7,233 nt of DNA from positions 1-7,233 of the forward strand of contig NZ_JACRSW010000021.1 of the NCBI RefSeq assembly GCF_014384965.1, written 5' to 3'. Source of the stretch: Jutongia hominis (GTDB lineage Bacteria; Bacillota; Clostridia; Lachnospirales; Lachnospiraceae). How positions within the stretch are numbered: position 1 is the first letter of the stretch; each line of letters begins with the position of its first letter. Under the pieces are notes generated by a model. That model was not told the origin of the DNA, made no database searches, and saw only the letters and a program-made list of their open reading frames with translations. The position numbers and the translations under genes are program-made. This document shows positions 1-7,233 of this stretch, piece after piece.

Positions 1-26
1 ACAGAAGACTTATGCAGTATTTCTTT
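1..26 (+). other. Possible right arm of a third intergenic hairpin, cut by the window edge
   Basis: Bases 7-14 read GACTTATG, the same octamer that forms the loop end and right arm of the hairpin at 6455-6495 (6474-6481); seven of the eight bases are shared with the hairpin at 1000-1037. It stands in the equivalent place, upstream of a gene. The left arm would lie outside the window and the following bases (CAGTATTTCTTT) carry no clean U run, so this is a suggestion from one short match only. Confidence 0.25.
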
Positions 27-184: not shown

Positions 185-973
185 ATGAAGAAGATAAGGA
201 TTATCTTATTATCCGCAGTACTGGTCTTTTCAATGGCTGCCTGTAATGGTGGTAAGGAAAAGGCTGATAATAAGACAGAGAAACAGACGGAAAGTGTAAA
301 GCCAACTGAAGAAGCAGAAATGGCAACGGAAGCTGTCACAGAGGTCGCAACCGAAGCTGGAAGTGAAGAGACAGAGAAAGATATTGCCGAGGTTAAAGAT
401 TCAGAAGAGAAGACGGATAAGGAAGATAACCAGTCTGCTGATAATGAAACTGCTTCAAAGCAGAAAGAAAAGTCAGAGCAGAATGACGAGTCGGAACAGA
501 AAGCTCCTGCAAGTGGTAATAAGGAAGCTGGTGGAAATCAGAGTAATGCAGGTAATGGTGGTCAGACTACAGACATTCCGAAAGACAATGTGAGCAATCC
601 AAAGCCTGCATCCGTGGCGTACAGTCCACAGAATGTTGTGTCACTTGCAACAGCAAAGTGTCAGGCAGGAGGGATGATTACCACACAGCAGAATTTACAG
701 AATCATTTGAATGACGGCAGTATCACGCAGGAAGAGTACAATGAGTATTATCCTTACGATGGTATGGAAGGCTCTTATTATAGTGTGTTTGTAGAGACAG
801 ACCTCAACAAAGCAAGTACCATTGATGGACAGCGGTTATCATCTGAGGATGCAATTGCAGAATATATTGCAAGTATGTTACTTTTGGAAACAGATCCGGT
901 ATTCTACATCAGTTATGATGGAGTTTACACGACAGGCGGCACAAACTATTACGAGTTTCGATGTCACAGATAA
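185..973 (+). CDS. Secreted lipoprotein with acidic spacer and small C-terminal domain
   Basis: A 262-residue lipoprotein of unknown function. The start at ATG 185 gives a textbook signal: basic MKK, a hydrophobic run, and lipobox MAAC with the lipidated cysteine at residue 20. A GTG at 89 in the same frame would add 32 non-hydrophobic residues, has no ribosome binding site and lies in the leader structures, so it was rejected. Residues 21 to about 140 are low complexity, rich in Glu, Lys, Thr, Ser, Asn and Gln, with loose TEA/VTEVATE repeats; this looks like a flexible spacer that crosses the wall. Residues about 144-262 look folded and are flanked by Cys159 and Cys260, which could form a disulfide after export. 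I do not recognise this domain. It sits directly upstream of the adhesin gene in the same direction, 91 bp away, with a terminator-like hairpin between, so co-expression is possible. Its own leader carries the T-box-like element. Membrane anchoring is well supported; any role as partner, receptor or exclusion factor is a guess. Confidence 0.85.
   Translation: MKKIRIILLSAVLVFSMAACNGGKEKADNKTEKQTESVKPTEEAEMATEAVTEVATEAGSEETEKDIAEVKDSEEKTDKEDNQSADNETASKQKEKSEQNDESEQKAPASGNKEAGGNQSNAGNGGQTTDIPKDNVSNPKPASVAYSPQNVVSLATAKCQAGGMITTQQNLQNHLNDGSITQEEYNEYYPYDGMEGSYYSVFVETDLNKASTIDGQRLSSEDAIAEYIASMLLLETDPVFYISYDGVYTTGGTNYYEFRCHR
924..952 (+). promoter_or_regulatory. Weak candidate promoter inside the end of the lipoprotein gene
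   Basis: TTTACA (924-929), a 17-bp spacer and TATTAC (947-952) match the sigma-A consensus at 5 of 6 and 4 of 6 positions. A transcript from here would start near 959 and meet the hairpin at 1000-1037 before the adhesin gene, making that hairpin a leader attenuator. Such matches occur by chance in A+T-rich sequence, so this is only a candidate. Confidence 0.2.
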
Positions 974-999
974 ATAAAAACGAATAGAAGCAGAAGGAA

Positions 1000-1037
1000 G
1001 AAAGATGTAAGCCATAAACTTATGTCTTTCTTTTTTT
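1000..1037 (+). terminator. Terminator-like hairpin between lipoprotein and adhesin genes
   Basis: A 12-bp stem (1000-1011 with 1019-1030) closes a 7-nt loop CCATAAA and is followed by seven T (1031-1037). The stem contains a tandem wobble, G1007-T1023 and T1006-G1024, in the middle of otherwise Watson-Crick pairs. The hairpin lies 27 nt before the adhesin ATG, leaving room for the ribosome binding site but not for a promoter, so it probably terminates only partly or is regulated. Its core is shared with the hairpin at 6455-6495. Confidence 0.75.
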
Positions 1038-1048
1038 ATGCGTAAATT

Positions 1049-1055
1049 AAGGAGG
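1049..1055 (+). promoter_or_regulatory. Ribosome binding site fixing the adhesin start
   Basis: AAGGAGG, a full match to the anti-Shine-Dalgarno complement, ends 9 nt before the ATG at 1065. An in-frame ATG at 1038 lies at the end of the terminator's T run, has no ribosome binding site, and would put nine residues before the signal peptide, so 1065 is the start. Confidence 0.9.
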
Positions 1056-1064
1056 AAAGAGCAC

Positions 1065-4000
1065 ATGAAACAGAAACTAAAGCGTTTTATGGCAGGATTT
1101 ATGGCTATGCTCACACTGGTTGGAACACTCTTTACGAATGGAACAACAGCATTTGCAGCCAGTCCGCAGGCAAATATTGCGTTCTGGAATGCGTCAGTCA
1201 AAAATTCCGGAGAAGTAAGTGAGCTGAAGCCCGGATATAATCATGGTAAGATTCTGTATTCAATTCTTGACGGAAATTCTGCATATTGTATGAATTTCGG
1301 ATTAAGAGCAGATGGCGGTCAGCTTATGAACAGCTACGATGATGCGAGCACATCAATGTCAGCACAGCAGAGAAAGCTTTTAAGTTACTGCCTTTATTAT
1401 GGGTTTAACAGTACACAAAAGGCGGCACCAAGCAATAGTCAGTGCAATGAGTATATCGCAACTCAGGCAATGGTATGGGTTATTGTAGCAGATATCTTTG
1501 GAACCGGAAGTGGTGATTCGGCAGCAAGAAAGCTCTGTAACACAGCACCAAGTCCTGATTCTTCATACAGCTATTATGAGAGACTCAGGGACAATATCAA
1601 CAGTTCCTACAATGCAACGCTTCCAAGTTTTGCATCACGCAGAACCAGTGAGGCACCAACTTATGAATTAAAGTGGAATGAGGGAAGTCAGAGATTTGAA
1701 ACAACATTATCTGACAGCAATGGTGTTTTATCGGATTTTGATTTTGGCATCAGCGGATATTCTGTTGATAAGAATGGCAACAGTATTACAATCTCTTCAA
1801 CGAGCGTGAATACTACAGCTACAACAGGAACATTCACATCCAATGCTGGCAAGGTTGAGACAACATCAAGCTGTGTATTCTGGCTTACAGGAAAGAGCGG
1901 ATATCAGGAGTTTATTTCTGAAAGACCGACAGCAGATCCTATCAAAGCATATATCAAGGTCAAGACAGAGAATATCGGATATGGTGAGCTTACAAAGACA
2001 GATGAGTCAAGCGGAGTGAAGCTTTCCGGTGCAGTCTATGGAATCTATTCTGACAGCGGATGCACAAACAGAATACAGACCATGACAACAGATGGAAACG
2101 GATATGCAAAGTCAGCTGCACTTGTCGCAGGTACTTATTATGTAAAAGAGATTACCGCACCAAAGGGATATGTCCTTTCCGGTAAAGTTCATACACTTAC
2201 TGTAAAAGCAGGACAGACAACGGGAATCTCTGCAACAGATAAAGAGCAGCTTGGAGCAATCACAATCTATAAAGAGGGTGAGGTGCTTAGCTCATGGAAT
2301 GGAAGTAACTTCACTTATGAGAAAAAGAAGCTTTCCGGAGCAGCATTTAAGGTAACTGCTGGAGCAGATATCTATAAGGCAGATGGTACAAAGGTGTATA
2401 GTGCTGGCGATGTTGTGGCAGAAAGCCTTACAACAGGAACTGACGGACAGGTGGTATTATCTGACCTTCATCTTGGAACTTATGTGGTAACTGAGATTAA
2501 GAGCATTGACGGGTATACAATCAATACCACACCTCAGACAGTAGCAGTTGAGTATAAGGACCAAACTGTGACAGTACAGTATGAATCAACTACGATTGAG
2601 AATACAAGACAGAAAGCCGATGTATCTGTCGTAAAGAAGGACTCTGACACAGAGAATCCTCTTGATGGTGGCAAGTACACACTTTATGCCGGAAATGACA
2701 TCAAAAACTATGCCGGACAGGTTATTGTGACAAAGGGTACAGCTCTTGAGACAGTAACTACAGGTGAGGACGGAAAGGCAAGCTACAGCGTGGATCTGCC
2801 AATCTCTAACGGATATTATATCTCAGAGACACAGGCACCATACGCTTATATCAGAAACCAGTCTGATGTGTATAGTTTCAACTTCAATGTATTGCCTGAA
2901 ACACAGGCAAAGGCATCATTCAGCCACACATTTAAGAATGACAGAACTACAGCTAAGATTCACATTTACAAGGTAGATAAGGAATCGGGCAAGGCAGTTC
3001 CACAGGGTGATGCAAGCCTTGAAGGAGCAGTTTATGGTCTTTATGCCAGAAACGATATCGTGCATCCGGACGGAGCAACAGGTGTTGTATTTAAAGCAGG
3101 GGACTTAGTTGCAACTCTTACAACAGATAAGAATGGCGAGGCAGAGGTAAATAACCTTTATCTTGGCAACTATTATGTGAAAGAAATCACACCATCAGAA
3201 GGCTATCTTCTTGATGAAGAGGAGCATGATGTAGTATGCGACTACGAGGGAGACTTAGTAGCAGAGGTATCAAGAAGTACAACTTCCGCAGAGCAGGTCA
3301 TCAAGCAGCCATTCCAGCTTATCAAGGTATCGGACAATGGCGATGATACTGAAGCAGGACTTCTTGCAGGAGCAGAGTTTACAGCTTACTTAAAATCATC
3401 TTTACCTGTAAAGGAAGATGGAAGCTATGACTTTGATAAGGCAACTCCAGTAGTAATCGGTGAAAATGGAGCCACAACAATCACATCAGACGACAAAGGA
3501 CATGCAGTATCCATTGCAATTCCTTATGGAACTTATGTGGTAGTAGAGTCAAAGACTCCGCATAACATGAAGACAATCAAGCCATTTGAGGTAAAAATCA
3601 GCGAGAACCATCCTGACAAGCCTCAGACATGGAGAGTATTCCTTGACAGGGAGTTTACTGCAAAGCTTCGTGTAATCAAGAAGGATTCCGATACAAAGCA
3701 GACAGTACTTGTACCAAATGCAGAGTTTAAGATCTTCAATATTGATAAGAATGAATATGTGAAGCAGTACACAACTTATCCGTCAAAGGTCGAGCATACT
3801 TCATTCTTTACTGACGATGATGGAGATTTAATCTTACCTGAAGCACTTAAAATCGGTAACTACCGTATTGAGGAAGTATCTGCACCATACGGATATGTTG
3901 TAAATGATAAGTATGTCAGCATCTCTGTTGATACTGATACAGCATTTGAAACAGATGGTGATACAAATGATGCAATCATTACTGTGGAATATTCCGATGC

Positions 4001-6443
4001 CCCTGCAGTCGGAGAAATGACTGTAGAAAAGAAGGGTGAGGTACTTGACGGATTCAAGGGTGGACTTCTTGCAAGCTCATATGAGAAAGAGTTTGTTTAT
4101 AAGGAAGGCTCACTTGCCGGAGCAAAATTCAAAGTTTATGCTGCCGAGGATATTTACACAGCAGACAACCAGAAGGATGCAGACGGAAACCGCATTAAGT
4201 ATTACAGCAAGGGAGACCTTGTGACAACTCTTACAACTGGCAAGGATGGAAAGGCAACAGCTAAGAATCTTCCTCTTGGACAGTACAGAGTTGTGGAAGT
4301 GGAAGCTCCATACGGATATGTATTAAATCCGAATGAGCAGAAAGTGACATTCACATATGTGGATGATAAGACACCTGTTATCAAGGAAAGCCTTACTTTC
4401 TCAGATGACAGACAGAAGCTTGATATGTCAGTGACTAAGCTTGATGCAGAAGATAACACACCGATTGCAGGTGCAGTATTTGGTCTTTATGCAGACGAGG
4501 ATATCAAGAATGTAGATGGCAAGGTAATTATCGAGAAAGGCACACTTCTTGAGAAGACAACATCTGATGAGAATGGAAAGATTGCTTTTGTTAAGGATTA
4601 TCCATTTGCAAAATATGTTGCAAGGGAGCTTGTAAAGCCTGCCGGATATGTGACAAATGAGGAAGCAGTAAACTTTGATACAAAATATCAGGGACAGGAT
4701 GTTAAGACTGCTGTATATAACAGCAAGTATAAGAACACTCCTACAACCTTTGAGTTTACAAAGACAGATATCACAAGCGGTGCAGAGCTTACAGGTGCAA
4801 CACTTACTGTACTTGATAAGGATGGAAATGTGGTAGACACATGGACATCTGATGCTAAGGAAGCACATGTAATCAAGAGACTTGTAGTTGGAGAGACTTA
4901 CACTCTTCGTGAGGAATTTGCTCCTTACGGATACCTCAAGGCAACTGATATCCAGTTTACAGTAGAGGATACAGGCAAAGTGCAGCATGTAGAGATGAAG
5001 GATGAAGTACCTACAGGTTCCATTGTCATCAATAAGGATGGCGAATTTGTAACAGATACTACTCTTATGAAGGGTTACTGGTATGACTTTATCTTCAATT
5101 TCTTCAAGGACAGCCTTGCAGGAGTAACTTTTGATGTATATGCAAAAGAGGATATCGTAAGTGCTGACGGACTTGACACTGTATATCATAAGGCAGGAGA
5201 CAAGGTGGCAACCATCGTGACAAATGATAAGGGTATCGCAAGAATTGATGACCTTCCACTTGGCAAGTATTATCTTGTTGAGACAAAGACCATTGATGGA
5301 TTTGTATTAGATGATACACCGATTGAGGCAGACCTTTCCTATATCGACCAGAATACAAAGGTTGTTTTCGCAGGAATGGATGTGACAAATGAGCGTCAGA
5401 AAGTGCAGATTACTGTTACAAAGACTGATTCAGAGACAAAGAAAGAGCTTGAAGGTGCTGTATTTGGTTTGTATGCGAAAGAAGATATCGTAAATAAGGA
5501 TGGAAAGGTTATTGTCAAAGCAGATACACAGATTGAGAGAGGTGTTACTGGAAAGGATGGCAAAGTAACATTTACCTCTGACCTTCCGCTTGGACAGTAT
5601 TATGTCAAAGAGATTGAGGCACCAAAGGGCTATGTGAAGTCTGATAAGATTTTTGATGTGGATGCTTCATATCAGGGAGATAAGGTAAAGGTTATCGAGT
5701 TTAAGGCAGCATTTGAAAATGCACCGATCAAGGTAGAGATTTCAAAGACTGATATCACAGGCGAGAAAGAATTACCTGGAGCAAAGCTTTCAGTTATTGA
5801 TGCTGATGGAAAGCTTGTTGAGAGCTGGACATCAGAGGCAGGAAAGACTCATATGATTGAGAGACTTCCTGTCGGAAAGTACACACTCAGAGAGGAATCT
5901 GCACCATATGGATATAAGGTGGCAAGTGATGTGACCTTTGAAGTAAAGGAGACAGCAGAAATCCAGAAGGTATCCATGAAGGATGAGCAGGCAGTCGGTA
6001 AGATTGTCATTGAGAAAACTGACAAAGTAACCGGAAAGCCAATCGAGGGTGTTGTATTTGAAGTAAGAGATAAGGACGGAAAGGTGCTTGATACACTCAC
6101 TACTGACAAGAATGGTCATGCAGAGAGCAAGGAGCTTCCTATCTGTACTTACAACGAGGATGGAACTTTTAAGGAAGATATCCATTATACAGTAGTTGAG
6201 ACAAAAGCAGCTGACGGATATATCCTTGATGAAACAGCCCATGATGTAACTCTTCGATATGATGACAATGCACCGGATGTTGTTGTAGCAACTCTTAAGC
6301 TTGTCAATGTACCGACAGAGCCTAAGCTTCCACAGACAGGCGACAATGCAAATCCGCTTCTTTATCTTGGAATTGGTGCACTTGCACTTATTACAGGTGT
6401 TGGAGTCGGACTTCGTGGAAGAAAGAAAAAGAATAAACAGTAA
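1065..6443 (+). CDS. Thioester-domain, multi-CnaB (SpaA-type) cell-wall adhesin, LPQTG-anchored
   Basis: A 1792-residue surface protein. Residues 1-31 are a Sec signal peptide ending in AFA. Residues about 36-305 form a thioester domain: Cys75 in AYCMNFG and Gln134 in ATQAMVW are the pair expected to form the internal thioester, which in this family reacts covalently with target-surface amines. Then follow 13 CnaB/SpaA-like beta-sandwich domains starting near residues 307, 397, 518, 630, 750, 866, 982, 1119, 1229, 1318, 1447, 1557 and 1645. Each has a first-strand Lys (for example K311, K524, K1125, K1453, K1651) and a Glu in a segment like VKEITAPKGY; many end in an Asn or Asp, the residues needed for an intramolecular Lys-Asn/Asp isopeptide bond. 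LPQTG at 1755-1759, a hydrophobic span and the tail RKKKNKQ form the sortase signal. No YPKN pilin motif is seen, so it is more likely a monomeric fibrous adhesin or tip subunit than a pilus backbone. No sortase gene is in the window; a housekeeping sortase would serve. The reading frame is intact across the repeats. The ligand cannot be read from the sequence. Confidence 0.93.
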   Translation: MKQKLKRFMAGFMAMLTLVGTLFTNGTTAFAASPQANIAFWNASVKNSGEVSELKPGYNHGKILYSILDGNSAYCMNFGLRADGGQLMNSYDDASTSMSAQQRKLLSYCLYYGFNSTQKAAPSNSQCNEYIATQAMVWVIVADIFGTGSGDSAARKLCNTAPSPDSSYSYYERLRDNINSSYNATLPSFASRRTSEAPTYELKWNEGSQRFETTLSDSNGVLSDFDFGISGYSVDKNGNSITISSTSVNTTATTGTFTSNAGKVETTSSCVFWLTGKSGYQEFISERPTADPIKAYIKVKTENIGYGELTKTDESSGVKLSGAVYGIYSDSGCTNRIQTMTTDGNGYAKSAALVAGTYYVKEITAPKGYVLSGKVHTLTVKAGQTTGISATDKEQLGAITIYKEGEVLSSWNGSNFTYEKKKLSGAAFKVTAGADIYKADGTKVYSAGDVVAESLTTGTDGQVVLSDLHLGTYVVTEIKSIDGYTINTTPQTVAVEYKDQTVTVQYESTTIENTRQKADVSVVKKDSDTENPLDGGKYTLYAGNDIKNYAGQVIVTKGTALETVTTGEDGKASYSVDLPISNGYYISETQAPYAYIRNQSDVYSFNFNVLPETQAKASFSHTFKNDRTTAKIHIYKVDKESGKAVPQGDASLEGAVYGLYARNDIVHPDGATGVVFKAGDLVATLTTDKNGEAEVNNLYLGNYYVKEITPSEGYLLDEEEHDVVCDYEGDLVAEVSRSTTSAEQVIKQPFQLIKVSDNGDDTEAGLLAGAEFTAYLKSSLPVKEDGSYDFDKATPVVIGENGATTITSDDKGHAVSIAIPYGTYVVVESKTPHNMKTIKPFEVKISENHPDKPQTWRVFLDREFTAKLRVIKKDSDTKQTVLVPNAEFKIFNIDKNEYVKQYTTYPSKVEHTSFFTDDDGDLILPEALKIGNYRIEEVSAPYGYVVNDKYVSISVDTDTAFETDGDTNDAIITVEYSDAPAVGEMTVEKKGEVLDGFKGGLLASSYEKEFVYKEGSLAGAKFKVYAAEDIYTADNQKDADGNRIKYYSKGDLVTTLTTGKDGKATAKNLPLGQYRVVEVEAPYGYVLNPNEQKVTFTYVDDKTPVIKESLTFSDDRQKLDMSVTKLDAEDNTPIAGAVFGLYADEDIKNVDGKVIIEKGTLLEKTTSDENGKIAFVKDYPFAKYVARELVKPAGYVTNEEAVNFDTKYQGQDVKTAVYNSKYKNTPTTFEFTKTDITSGAELTGATLTVLDKDGNVVDTWTSDAKEAHVIKRLVVGETYTLREEFAPYGYLKATDIQFTVEDTGKVQHVEMKDEVPTGSIVINKDGEFVTDTTLMKGYWYDFIFNFFKDSLAGVTFDVYAKEDIVSADGLDTVYHKAGDKVATIVTNDKGIARIDDLPLGKYYLVETKTIDGFVLDDTPIEADLSYIDQNTKVVFAGMDVTNERQKVQITVTKTDSETKKELEGAVFGLYAKEDIVNKDGKVIVKADTQIERGVTGKDGKVTFTSDLPLGQYYVKEIEAPKGYVKSDKIFDVDASYQGDKVKVIEFKAAFENAPIKVEISKTDITGEKELPGAKLSVIDADGKLVESWTSEAGKTHMIERLPVGKYTLREESAPYGYKVASDVTFEVKETAEIQKVSMKDEQAVGKIVIEKTDKVTGKPIEGVVFEVRDKDGKVLDTLTTDKNGHAESKELPICTYNEDGTFKEDIHYTVVETKAADGYILDETAHDVTLRYDDNAPDVVVATLKLVNVPTEPKLPQTGDNANPLLYLGIGALALITGVGVGLRGRKKKNKQ
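2253..2951 (+). repeat. First, partial copy (A-B) of the CnaB domain block
   Basis: Domains 2 and 3 of the adhesin (residues 397-629) have the same order and signatures as the first two domains of the later blocks: an A-type domain with a KEGEV opening, an insertion before LSGAAF and an ENTRQK end, then a B-type domain with KKDSD and a DIKN segment. The C-type domain that follows A-B at 4008-5996 is absent; domains 4-6 are there instead. Similarity is at protein level and diverged. Confidence 0.6.
4008..5015 (+). repeat. CnaB domain block A-B-C, copy 1
   Basis: Domains 7-9 of the adhesin (residues 982-1317, 336 aa). A: opens VEKKGEV, has a long insertion before SLAGAKF, ends DDRQK. B: opens VTKLDAE, has GAVFGLYADEDIKN and DGKVI, ends KYKNTP. 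C: opens FTKTDIT, has YTLREEFAPYGY, ends VEMKDE. The next 327 residues repeat this order, so a three-domain unit was duplicated in tandem and then diverged. Confidence 0.8.
5016..5996 (+). repeat. CnaB domain block A-B-C, copy 2
   Basis: Domains 10-12 of the adhesin (residues 1318-1644, 327 aa). A: opens INKDGEF, ends TNERQK. B: opens VTKTDSE, has GAVFGLYAKEDIVN and DGKVIV. C: opens ISKTDIT, has YTLREESAPYGY, ends VSMKDE. The C domains of the two copies are the most alike, with about half of the residues the same by eye. The A domain of this copy carries an unusual aromatic insertion not seen in the others. Confidence 0.8.
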
Positions 6444-6454
6444 TAATTAACCTT

Positions 6455-6495
6455 GCGGGGAATGTAAGCCAGTGACTTATGTTCTCCGCTTTTTT
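6455..6495 (+). terminator. Terminator-like hairpin between adhesin and HTH genes
   Basis: A 14-bp stem (6455-6468 with 6476-6489) closes a 7-nt loop CCAGTGA and is followed by six T (6490-6495). It contains the same tandem wobble next to the loop-proximal helix as the hairpin at 1000-1037 (G6464-T6480, T6463-G6481), plus one more G-T lower down. Only 17 nt separate the T run from the GTG of the next gene, so the downstream genes have no room for a promoter here and must depend on read-through or on a promoter inside the adhesin gene. Confidence 0.8.
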
Positions 6496-6512: not shown

Positions 6513-6860
6513 GTGGTAGGAGAAAGAATCAGATATTACAGAAAACGACAAAAAATGACACTCAGGGAACTGGGCGAGAAAAGTGGTTTTGAAAATAGAG
6601 GTGATGTAAGAATTGCCCAATACGAAAATGGTTCAAGAGTTCCAAAGACGGGAACGTTGAACAGGATTGCAAAGGCACTTGGTATTCCGCCAGAAGAATT
6701 ATTCTGTGAGAACTGTAGAAAGTGCATGTTTCTCAAGAATTATTACAGAAAGAAAAGAAAATCTCATACCACTTTTGATATGGGAATCGAAGAAGACAAC
6801 AGTTACAGAGAACACAATAATCCCGATGATGAGGGAATTTTATATGACAATTTAGATTAA
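6513..6860 (+). CDS. Cro/CI-type helix-turn-helix regulator with Cys-x2-Cys-x2-Cys motif
   Basis: A 115-residue DNA-binding protein starting at GTG. Residues about 3-64 form an HTH_3/Xre-like domain: RIRYYRKRQKMTLRELGEKSG, then the recognition region with IAQYENGSRVPK, then TLNRIAKALGIPPEELF. The stretch ENRGDV between helix 2 and the recognition helix is a little longer than in typical members. Directly after the domain come Cys65, Cys68 and Cys71, which could bind a metal or sense redox state, followed by a basic patch (YYRKKRK) and an acidic tail (residues about 85-115) of unknown role. The gene follows the adhesin across a terminator-like hairpin and is 14 nt from the DUF5688-type gene, whose ribosome binding site overlaps this gene's stop codon. 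It probably regulates its own region or host-element genes; the target cannot be read here. Confidence 0.85.
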   Translation: MVGERIRYYRKRQKMTLRELGEKSGFENRGDVRIAQYENGSRVPKTGTLNRIAKALGIPPEELFCENCRKCMFLKNYYRKKRKSHTTFDMGIEEDNSYREHNNPDDEGILYDNLD

Positions 6861-6874
6861 GGAGGAACCGTAAT

Positions 6875-7233
6875 ATGATGAATTACGAGATTTTTAAGGA
6901 AGTAGTAAAAGAAAAGTTTATGGATTATATGCCTGAGAAATTCAAAGGAATGGAGCTTGTGGCAGAGCCAGTGGAAAAGGTGAATGTGACTCTTGATGGC
7001 ATCATCTTAAGAGAAGAAGGCAGGAACATTTCGCCTACGATTTATATCAATGACATGTATAAGAAGTATCAGGACTGTGGTGATCTTGAGGAAACACTTA
7101 TGGCTGCATGTGATTTTATGGAAAGGGCATATGAGCAGGCTCCGGTTGTTGATGTGGACAGCATTATGAAGGATGCTAACGAGAAGATTGTATTCCAGCT
7201 CATCAATACAGAGCAGAATAAGACATTTTTGGA
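6875..7233 (+). CDS. DUF5688-type protein, 3' end beyond the window
   Basis: The first 119 residues of an open frame that continues past the window. AAGGAGG (6859-6865), overlapping the stop codon of the HTH gene, ends 9 nt before ATG 6875; a second ATG follows at once (6878), and the first fits the spacing better. The N-terminal pattern, with MNYEIFKEVVKEKF, then MPEKFKGMELVAEPVEKVNVTLDGI and SPTIYINDMYKKY, is one I associate with DUF5688, a family of uncharacterised soluble proteins frequent in Lachnospiraceae, often in several copies and in accessory regions. No signal peptide or membrane segment is seen, so it is probably cytoplasmic. The tight spacing indicates translation in one operon with the HTH protein. 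The family function is unknown and nothing in the visible part reveals a catalytic motif. The family call is from memory. Confidence 0.75.
   Translation, partial: MMNYEIFKEVVKEKFMDYMPEKFKGMELVAEPVEKVNVTLDGIILREEGRNISPTIYINDMYKKYQDCGDLEETLMAACDFMERAYEQAPVVDVDSIMKDANEKIVFQLINTEQNKTFL

What the first reader, a model, noticed from the sequence alone, without database searches (positions are those of the whole stretch)
1000..6495. Two intergenic hairpins share the same core, loop ends and tandem wobble pairs
The hairpins at 1000-1037 and 6455-6495 have unrelated lower stems but an identical upper part: left arm ATGTAAG (1005-1011; 6462-6468), a 7-nt loop CCANNNA, right arm CTTATGT. In both, G-U and U-G wobbles stand side by side at the same height in the stem. 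Ordinary terminators of different genes do not share loops and mismatches. This points to a recognised RNA or DNA motif, for example a binding site for an antitermination, processing or element-encoded regulatory protein, or to a spreading small repeat. A third right arm may start the window (7-14).
Basis: seen in the sequence. Interest (0 to 1): 0.72.

Follow-up and report, generated by a model that had tools for sequence, protein, structure and literature searches.

The report
Look-alike terminators around an adhesin gene
In a mobile element of gut bacteria, two look-alike RNA hairpins that are predicted to stop transcription bracket a surface-adhesin gene, and no promoter-like site was found between either hairpin and the next gene, so the element likely needs a way to read past them; a structured RNA of unknown function at the start of the same gene cluster, seen in about half of the related genomes examined, is a candidate for that job.

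Summary
Hairpins A (993-1037) and B (6455-6495) share ATGTAAG-CCANNNA-CTTATGT on unrelated lower stems. Both are U-tailed, terminator-like, and bracket a 1792-aa SpaA/thioester/LPXTG adhesin gene in the transfer operon of a Lachnospiraceae integrative conjugative element (ICE). All 31 exact copies found among 84,980 species genomes sit at A or B of this ICE, so it is no dispersed repeat. The supposed third arm (7-14) is coding. In diverged ICEs located by protein homology the wobbles and stems change, but the 5' apex RRG-CCA recurs at A (6 of 11 lineages) and B (3 of 7 with a hairpin), against 1 of 972 host hairpins by the same rule. Only 27 and 17 nt separate the U-tracts from the next start codons, so the genes after them must be reached by read-through. 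Known parallels are the terminator/antitermination systems of pLS20 and Tn916. In 12 of 23 related genomes the orphan Rfam RNA Clostridiales-3 (RF02942) starts this operon, 3.0-3.2 kb before A (6.2 kb in one); in 7 of 7 checked, A is the first terminator-like hairpin after it. I propose it as candidate processive antiterminator. It is missing from several ICEs that have the hairpins, and nothing was tested in cells.

The parts
993..1037 (+). Hairpin A: terminator-like stem-loop with U-tract between the lipoprotein-like gene and the adhesin gene
   Evidence: fold; scans; same position in relatives
1005..1025 (+). Shared core of A: ATGTAAG CCATAAA CTTATGT
6455..6495 (+). Hairpin B: terminator-like stem-loop with T6 tract between the adhesin gene and the HTH / DUF5688 genes
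   Evidence: fold; scan; relatives
6462..6482 (+). Shared core of B: ATGTAAG CCAGTGA CTTATGT
1065..6443 (+). Adhesin gene between the hairpins, 1792 aa: thioester domain, repeated SpaA domains, LPXTG anchor; RBS AAGGAGG at 1049-1055, start codon 27 nt after the A U-tract
   Evidence: Pfam, NCBIfam (NF033902, TIGR01167), gap
185..973 (+). Lipoprotein-like gene upstream of A (262 aa; lipoprotein is my reading of the signal sequence); stop codon ends 19 nt before the A stem
   Evidence: no confident family
6513..6860 (+). HTH gene after B, GTG start 17 nt after the U-tract; missing in some ICE copies
6875..7231 (+). DUF5688 gene (cut by the window end)
7..14 (+). Proposed third right arm: coding sequence of a 27-codon reading frame, not a hairpin copy

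Best explanation
The two hairpins are U-tailed, terminator-like stem-loops on either side of a cell-surface adhesin gene in the transfer operon of a gut-bacterial integrative conjugative element, and they likely act as intrinsic terminators that RNA polymerase would have to be helped past before the adhesin and transfer genes are made. Shown from sequence: position, structure, covarying lower stems, U-tracts, terminator-like hairpins at the same two positions in diverged ICEs, a recurrent RRG-CCA apex, and 27 and 17 nt between U-tract and next start codon with no promoter-like match there. Inferred: that they terminate in vivo, that downstream genes depend on read-through, and that the read-through is processive antitermination as in pLS20 (conAn) and Tn916 (canT). 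Predicted: the antiterminator is the Clostridiales-3 RNA (RF02942) found at the 5' end of the operon in 12 of 23 genomes examined. Spurious transcripts would stop at A or B; only polymerase that started at the operon promoter and transcribed that RNA would pass. The kept apex would be the part of the terminator on which the element's own factor, or a host elongation factor, acts.
For: Terminator anatomy; a U-tract follows the A-position hairpin in nine diverged lineages (R. hominis, G127, G190/G282, G196, G210, G123, G118, RUG14549, G724). Lower stem covariation: 34 cells changed on both sides, 98.4% of cells paired, 0 of 500 shuffles as high for either (rows were chosen by the core). Tight spacing: U-tract to start codon is 25-37 nt in 9 of 14 A rows and 12-29 nt in 13 of 13 B rows measured, although apices differ. 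No promoter-like site on the + strand before 1765 or between 5273 and 6793. RF02942 over its gathering score in 13 of 23 genomes; in 12 it lies upstream of A on the same contig and strand; 0 of 14 control genomes. In 7 of the 12 I looked between RNA and A: A is the first terminator-like hairpin in 7 of 7. More terminator-like hairpins lie deeper in the transfer region. GCCA within 5 nt of the apex: 4 of 10 ICE hairpins in G009, 5 of 10 in G008, 4 of 7 in G001, 4 of 8 in G279, and 10 of 42 in nine further slices, against 4 of 272 in host DNA. Precedents: pLS20 (PMC8955417, abstract and passages read) and Tn916 (PMC11658703, passages read). B is kept with a perfect stem in two ICEs that lost the adhesin cassette.
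Against: RF02942 is not found within 5.7-6 kb upstream of the adhesin in G013, G190, G282, G210, G118 (two loci) or G123 at E up to 0.01, although these have an A-position hairpin, so it cannot be the only way past. conAn and canT act on unrelated terminators (canT on heterologous ones), so they do not explain a shared apex. A-position hairpins of G210, G123, G118, G724 and G637 lack RRGCCA, as do B of G196, G210, G123 and one R. hominis ICE; of eight further DUF5688 loci folded, one (G021) has AAGCCA. In 5 of 14 A rows (R. hominis, G013, G123, G724, G637) the gap is 73-169 nt, room for a promoter. The B hairpin has no U-tract in G210 and only UUU in G127. The promoter scan finds no more sites than shuffles do (16 against 16.2) and covers one promoter type. 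Without A and B the apex excess in G009 is 2 of 8 (P 0.010), and one of those two lies in a reading frame; the GCC at the relaxase stop is coding (own reading). The second R. hominis ICE slice, G196 and G123 show no GCCA apex (0 of 3, 0 of 3, 0 of 4). In host DNA 11 of 134 terminator-like hairpins also have a start codon within 40 nt. No expression data exist here.
Confidence: 0.45

Rival explanations
1. Partial intra-operon terminators without any antitermination: A and B leak at a fixed rate and simply set how much adhesin and transfer protein is made relative to upstream genes.
For: Same anatomy and spacing; needs no extra factor; fits ICEs without RF02942; 11 of 134 host terminator-like hairpins have a start codon within 40 nt.
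Against: Gives no reason for the shared RRGCCA apex (1 of 972 host hairpins). Several hairpins in series before the transfer genes would multiply the loss.
Confidence: 0.25
2. An RNA-binding protein, of the element or the host, recognises the AAG-CCANNNA-CTT apex and controls termination or decay at both hairpins.
For: The apex is fixed while the lower stem covaries, recurs at A and B in other lineages, and is nearly absent from host hairpins.
Against: Loop length runs from 7 to 13 nt and the last loop base is A or G among relatives; lineages without the apex exist. No NusG-like gene lies in the ICE of 6 genomes, and Pfam scans of ten ICE proteins of G009 showed no known RNA-binding antiterminator; not every ICE protein was scanned.
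Confidence: 0.13
3. The likeness is inherited: one core was copied between A and B by duplication or conversion, and the apex has no function beyond closing a hairpin.
For: A and B copies in close ICEs are nearly identical, so much of the sameness is recent descent. ATGTAAG is also in the B hairpin of G190/G282 and may be the older source.
Against: R. hominis, at 65% identity in the adhesin N-terminus, keeps A and B cores alike although lower stems changed. A in G127, G190/G282 and G196 keeps RRG-CCA on other stems.
Confidence: 0.1
4. Processing or stabilising hairpins: after cleavage of a long transcript they protect 3' ends and separate cistrons of different stability.
For: Strong stem-loops at cistron borders; B lacks a proper U-tract in G210 and G127.
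Against: The U-tracts kept at A positions are a termination feature, not needed for protection.
Confidence: 0.07

Closest known systems
conAn processive antitermination system of pLS20-family conjugative plasmids (PMC8955417, abstract and passages read)
   Same: Long transfer operon with several intrinsic terminators inside it; an element at the operon start is the antiterminator; a surface-function gene (surface exclusion) is set apart by a terminator.
   Different: conAn has a protein part (ConAn1), none identified here; no shared terminator apex was mentioned in the passages read; similarity to conAn sequences was not tested because they were not held.
canT antiterminator and terminators T1-T3 of Tn916 (PMC11658703, passages read)
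   Different: Unrelated element; canT also works on heterologous terminators, whereas the hairpins here share an apex; no sequence comparison with canT was made.
Clostridiales-3 RNA, Rfam RF02942
   Same: The ICE operon leader in relatives scores up to 270.7 bits against a cut-off of 103.4.
   Different: Filed in Rfam as an sRNA; here no terminator-like hairpin was found between it and A, so it runs into an operon. It lies outside the window itself.
Premature terminator before the pil1 pilus genes of Streptococcus gallolyticus (PMC3894217, abstract and outline read)
   Same: A terminator hairpin upstream of surface pilus or adhesin genes.
   Different: There the length of a leader peptide with GCAGA repeats decides; here a 262-aa gene ends 19 nt before the hairpin.

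Membership tests
Intrinsic (Rho-independent) terminator | Stable stem-loop followed directly by a U-tract on the coding strand | tested here: met
   window A and B: (one search lists B only; A is); B relatives G210 and G127 lack a full U-tract
Intrinsic (Rho-independent) terminator | Transcript ends at the U-tract in vivo | not testable with these tools
   no RNA data
Processive antitermination operon (conAn / canT kind) | Several intrinsic terminators inside one co-directional transfer operon | tested here: met
   4 to 10 terminator-like hairpins per ICE slice, by definition and slice; some lie inside reading frames
Processive antitermination operon (conAn / canT kind) | Antiterminator element at the operon start | tested here: inconclusive
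   RF02942 in that place in 12 of 23 genomes, not found in others; function unknown
Processive antitermination operon (conAn / canT kind) | Sequence similarity to ConAn1, conAn2 or canT | not tested
   sequences not held; the original conAn paper is not in the library
LoaP / NusG-paralogue antitermination | NusG-domain gene in the element | tested here: not met
   PF02357 in 6 genomes: 8 hits, none in the ICE
Dispersed small repeat (REP / MITE kind) | Many copies in unrelated intergenic places | tested here: not met
   31 of 31 exact copies at A or B; covariance model
Known Rfam hairpin family | Match of A or B to an Rfam model above its cut-off | tested here: not met
Leader-peptide attenuator (S. 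gallolyticus pil1 kind) | Short translated leader overlapping or abutting the terminator | tested here: inconclusive
   upstream ORF is 262 aa and ends 19 nt before A; the gap varies among relatives

The most novel reading that the evidence does not exclude
Clostridiales-3 RNA is the processive antiterminator of an ICE family of gut Lachnospiraceae, and the element's terminators carry a matching tag, the AGCC(A) apex, that the antiterminator complex reads, perhaps through the conserved GGCU stretch of the RNA. That would be a terminator-addressed antitermination system and would give an orphan RNA family its function. The four- to five-base complementarity was seen by eye only and is within chance.
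Probability: 0.15. Interest if true: 0.85.

Novelty: new variant of a known kind. Interest (0 to 1): 0.5.

Why it matters
If right, conjugative elements of common gut bacteria use the same logic as pLS20 and Tn916, terminators inside the transfer operon plus an antiterminator at its start, but with terminators that share a recognisable apex and with a structured RNA, for which I found no described function, as the candidate antiterminator. One reporter experiment would test the function of that RNA family.

Tried and rejected
Plasmid and phage collections: no DNA match in plasmids, two weak phage matches in the adhesin gene; the adhesin N-terminus gave 3 plasmid and 6 phage records at 30% identity or less. 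A viral-contig search with an adhesin alignment gave the same single contig. Dispersed repeat: rejected. NusG paralogue in the ICE: rejected. Rfam family for the hairpins themselves: none. Third arm at 7-14: coding. Obligatory tandem wobble: rejected by R. hominis A, G190/G282 B and G127 A. The hairpin at the relaxase stop (AGCC apex) was set aside because its left arm is coding. Base pairing between RF02942 GGCU and the AGCC apex: seen by eye, not counted as evidence. Searches for print on Clostridiales-3 found nothing relevant in the held library; the conAn paper and the paper that I recalled as the origin of the RNA motif are not held.

Rows and rules behind the apex count: one search used 15 rows typed from earlier outputs, read from folds, whereas host hairpins came from a scan for contiguous stems; G196 A and G127 B, with internal mismatches, would not pass that scan. 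Near-identical copies were merged (R. porci and others with the window; G190 with G282; two G118 loci). RUG14549 A is counted although its ICE was found through the core of its B. G724 and G637 were not in the script; with them A is 6 of 11 (the G637 hairpin lies about 170 nt upstream and may not be the same position). G123 B was not in the script; with it B is 3 of 7. RUG14549 B and further R. hominis-type B copies, which have the core, were not counted because they were found by it. G118 and G637 show no hairpin between the adhesin stop and the next gene that I could call B; G724 ends before it. rows were all chosen by the core or a near match to it, so only the lower-stem covariation there is informative. 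The ICE slices are related to each other and some may run past the ICE.

Full report
What is there. The window (7233 nt) holds the end of a 27-codon reading frame, a lipoprotein-like gene (185-973), hairpin A (993-1037), an adhesin gene (1065-6443; thioester domain, repeated SpaA domains, LPXTG anchor), hairpin B (6455-6495), an HTH gene (6513-6860) and the start of a DUF5688 gene (6875-). All are on the + strand. In homologous stretches of other genomes this is followed by RadC-type, MobC, MobA/VirD2-type relaxase and TraG/VirD4 genes and preceded by an actin-like (ParM-type) gene, so I read it as part of the transfer operon of an integrative conjugative element (ICE).

The observation. The 21-nt core ATGTAAG-CCANNNA-CTTATGT occurs twice and nowhere else in the window within 3 mismatches; shuffles give 0.04 on average and never two. 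Both fold well below shuffles. The lower stems are unrelated. The third right arm at 7-14 is coding.

Spread. The exact core (18 fixed bases) is found in 31 stretches of the collection of 84,980 species genomes. From their flanks and neighbours 13 are copies of A and 18 of B, in 19 genomes, mostly of genera that I know as Lachnospiraceae, plus Pseudoruminococcus massiliensis (Acutalibacteraceae). By my arithmetic about 7.5 hits were expected by chance at even base composition; none lies elsewhere. A covariance model built from 13 hairpins finds in 299 genomes of the family of R. faecis 16 matches of 54 bits or more, all A or B copies; the next two, at 43 and 41 bits, are the B hairpins of G282 and G190; weaker matches were not examined one by one. 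In 14 carrier genomes the next match after the A and B copies (54 bits and more) is at 32 bits. R. hominis has four copies on four contigs, apparently of two ICEs. So this is not a dispersed repeat.

Selected by position, not by core. The adhesin N-terminus was searched in 299, 392 and 397 genomes (the draws overlap) and DUF5688 in 299. The DNA upstream of the adhesin start (A), upstream of DUF5688 and after the adhesin stop (B) was scanned and folded. A-position hairpins: R. hominis GGTATAAG-CCAACAA-CTTATGCC; G127 GGTTAAAG-CCAAATA-CTTTAACC; G190/G282 GACAAG-CCATTTYAYATGA-CTTGTC; G196 GCAGG-CCATGAAAGTGA-CCTGC; RUG14549 GAGCC-ATAA-GGTTT. G210, G123, G118, G724 and G637 have other apices. B-position: G190/G282 GTAAGC-CAGAGCA-GCTTAT; G127 AGGC-CATT-GCTT; G196 GTAGGC-CGTAATA-GCTTAC; G210 GTAGG-ATGTATTATA-CTTAC; G123 ACAGGC-TGAT-GTCTGT; a second R. 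hominis ICE has ATGTAAG-CTAATGA-CTTATGT. So stems turn over, wobbles come and go, the last loop base is A or G, and the 5' apex RRG-CCA recurs: A 6 of 11 lineages, B 3 of 7 with a hairpin. Of eight further DUF5688 loci folded (G179, G143, G021, G284, G118, G072, G241, G296), not all of this ICE, one (G021) has AAGCCA.

Background. In 800 kb of host DNA from three carrier genomes (40 stretches), 0 of 134 strict terminator-like hairpins have a loop that starts with CCA. Of 972 loose ones, 0 have RRGCCA at the exact apex and 1 within 2 nt, the rule used for the ICE rows. With an intermediate definition, GCCA within 5 nt of the apex is found in 4 of 272 host hairpins, but in 4 of 10 (G009), 5 of 10 (G008), 4 of 7 (G001) and 4 of 8 (G279; this slice holds B but not A) hairpins on the sense strand of the ICE, and in 10 of 42 in nine further slices: G127 2 of 6, G190 1 of 7, G282 2 of 6, G196 0 of 3, G118 1 of 4, G123 0 of 4, R. 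hominis 3 of 3 and 0 of 3, GAM79 1 of 6. Fisher P is 5e-5 for G009 and 2e-6 for G008 with A and B, and 0.010 and 5e-4 without them. Of the others, one is non-coding: a terminator 11.6 kb after B in G009 (AAGCACTTTAGCC aataaa GGTTAAGGTGCTT), with counterparts in G008, G279 and R. hominis. A G282 hairpin with TCTAAGCC atat GGTTTAGG lies at a different place. The hairpin at the relaxase stop and the one with apex TTGCCA lie in reading frames. The ICE samples are related to each other, so these are not independent tests.

No room for promoters. The U-tract of A ends at 1037, the RBS is at 1049-1055 and the start codon at 1065. The U-tract of B ends at 6495 and the GTG is at 6513. The sigma-70 scan lists no + strand site before 1765 or between 5273 and 6793, but it finds no more sites than shuffles do and covers one promoter type. 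Hence, in the window, the adhesin and the genes after B are reached by transcription through A and B. Measured over relatives, the gap is 25-37 nt in 9 of 14 A rows and 12-29 nt in 13 of 13 B rows; in R. hominis, G013, G123, G724 and G637 the A gap is 73-169 nt, and the B hairpin of G210 has no U-tract and that of G127 only UUU. A start codon within 40 nt of a U-tract is seen for 11 of 134 host hairpins, so this is uncommon but not unique.

Operon start. Rfam finds Clostridiales-3 RNA (RF02942) at the operon start in four of six loci scanned (244-271 bits, cut-off 103.4). Over 23 genomes chosen because they carry this ICE or adhesin relatives, 13 have it over the cut-off (14 at E <= 0.001). 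In 12 it is on the same contig and strand upstream of A, with 3.0-3.2 kb between RNA and A, or 6.2 kb in G009 where genes that I read as transposase genes lie between; a weak match in G016 has the same place; G123 has it on another contig; 0 of 14 control genomes have it. In the 7 of these 12 that I scanned, A is the first terminator-like hairpin after the RNA; a looser scan lists one more in G009 beside the inserted genes. Nine genomes have no match. For G190, G282, G210, G118 (two loci), G123 and G013, 5.7-6 kb upstream of the adhesin was searched at E up to 0.01 without a match. In G190, G282, G210 and G123 a 128-130-aa gene with a conserved leader of about 300 nt sits in that place instead.

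Mechanism. In pLS20 the transfer operon contains many intrinsic terminators that are passed thanks to conAn at the operon start (PMC8955417). [quoted passage not shown] I read the abstract and passages of the first and passages of the second. The ICE here has the same layout: structured RNA, short gene run, A, adhesin, B, transfer genes, more hairpins. I therefore propose that A and B are terminators read through by a processive antitermination system, with RF02942 as the candidate antiterminator. The shared apex is the part that this analogy does not explain; it suggests that the factor, or an elongation factor it recruits or opposes, touches the terminator hairpin itself. Everything about activity is inference.

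Backbone or cargo. In Lachnospiraceae bacterium GAM79 and R. inulinivorans the lipoprotein-like gene, A and the adhesin gene are missing, with a short remnant left, yet B is kept with a perfect stem before DUF5688. B thus looks like part of the ICE backbone and not merely the 3' end of the adhesin gene.

Novelty. Terminators in a transfer operon are known. A conserved apex shared by terminators of one operon, and a link of RF02942 to such an operon, did not turn up in my searches of the held library, which lacks most subscription papers.

Noticed in passing
L185 12695-13013 (+), L183 16263-16530 (+), L192 3072-3338 (-), L195 3646-3959 (-): Orphan Rfam family Clostridiales-3 (RF02942) sits as a leader at the start of the ICE transfer operon, with no terminator-like hairpin between it and A.
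   Followed up: yes
[quoted passage not shown]
   Followed up: no
L403 1850-2140, L404 4035-4320 (-), L405 3498-3800 (-), L408 3275-3560 (-): Four ICEs without Clostridiales-3 near A carry a 128-130-aa gene with a conserved leader. A 15-bp long-range pairing (columns 37-51 with 208-222 of A3) is predicted; by eye the same 3' segment can pair with GCTAAYYTGGTCCTA before a U-tract. It could be an attenuator or antiterminator leader.
   Followed up: partly
L187/L188 (GAM79), L202 (R. inulinivorans): The adhesin cassette (lipoprotein-like gene, A, adhesin gene) is missing, leaving a short remnant like the adhesin C-terminus; B stays intact.
   Followed up: yes
L295, L301, L304, L305, L306 upstream of DUF5688: Even where the apex differs, a terminator-like hairpin lies 14-29 nt before the DUF5688 start codon: a terminator directly before this gene seems to be a habit of the wider ICE group.
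   Followed up: partly
window 6513-6860 and relatives: The HTH gene after B is present in some ICE copies (G018, G279, G012, G008) and absent in others (G004, G006, G009, G013); R. porci has a 59-aa ORF whose end resembles the end of the HTH protein.
   Followed up: partly
L141, L144 (Pseudoruminococcus massiliensis): A and B with near-identical flanks occur in a species of another family (Acutalibacteraceae), a sign of recent transfer.
   Followed up: no
L185 12625-12641; seen in G018 and G009, not perfect in G001: A palindrome CTACAGAATTTCTGTAG lies beside promoter-like hexamers (by eye) just upstream of the Clostridiales-3 RNA: a possible operator of the operon promoter.
   Followed up: no
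L186 15087-15211 (+): An azaaromatic (yjdF) riboswitch aptamer (RF01764, 73.3 bits) lies inside the ICE region of G009.
   Followed up: no
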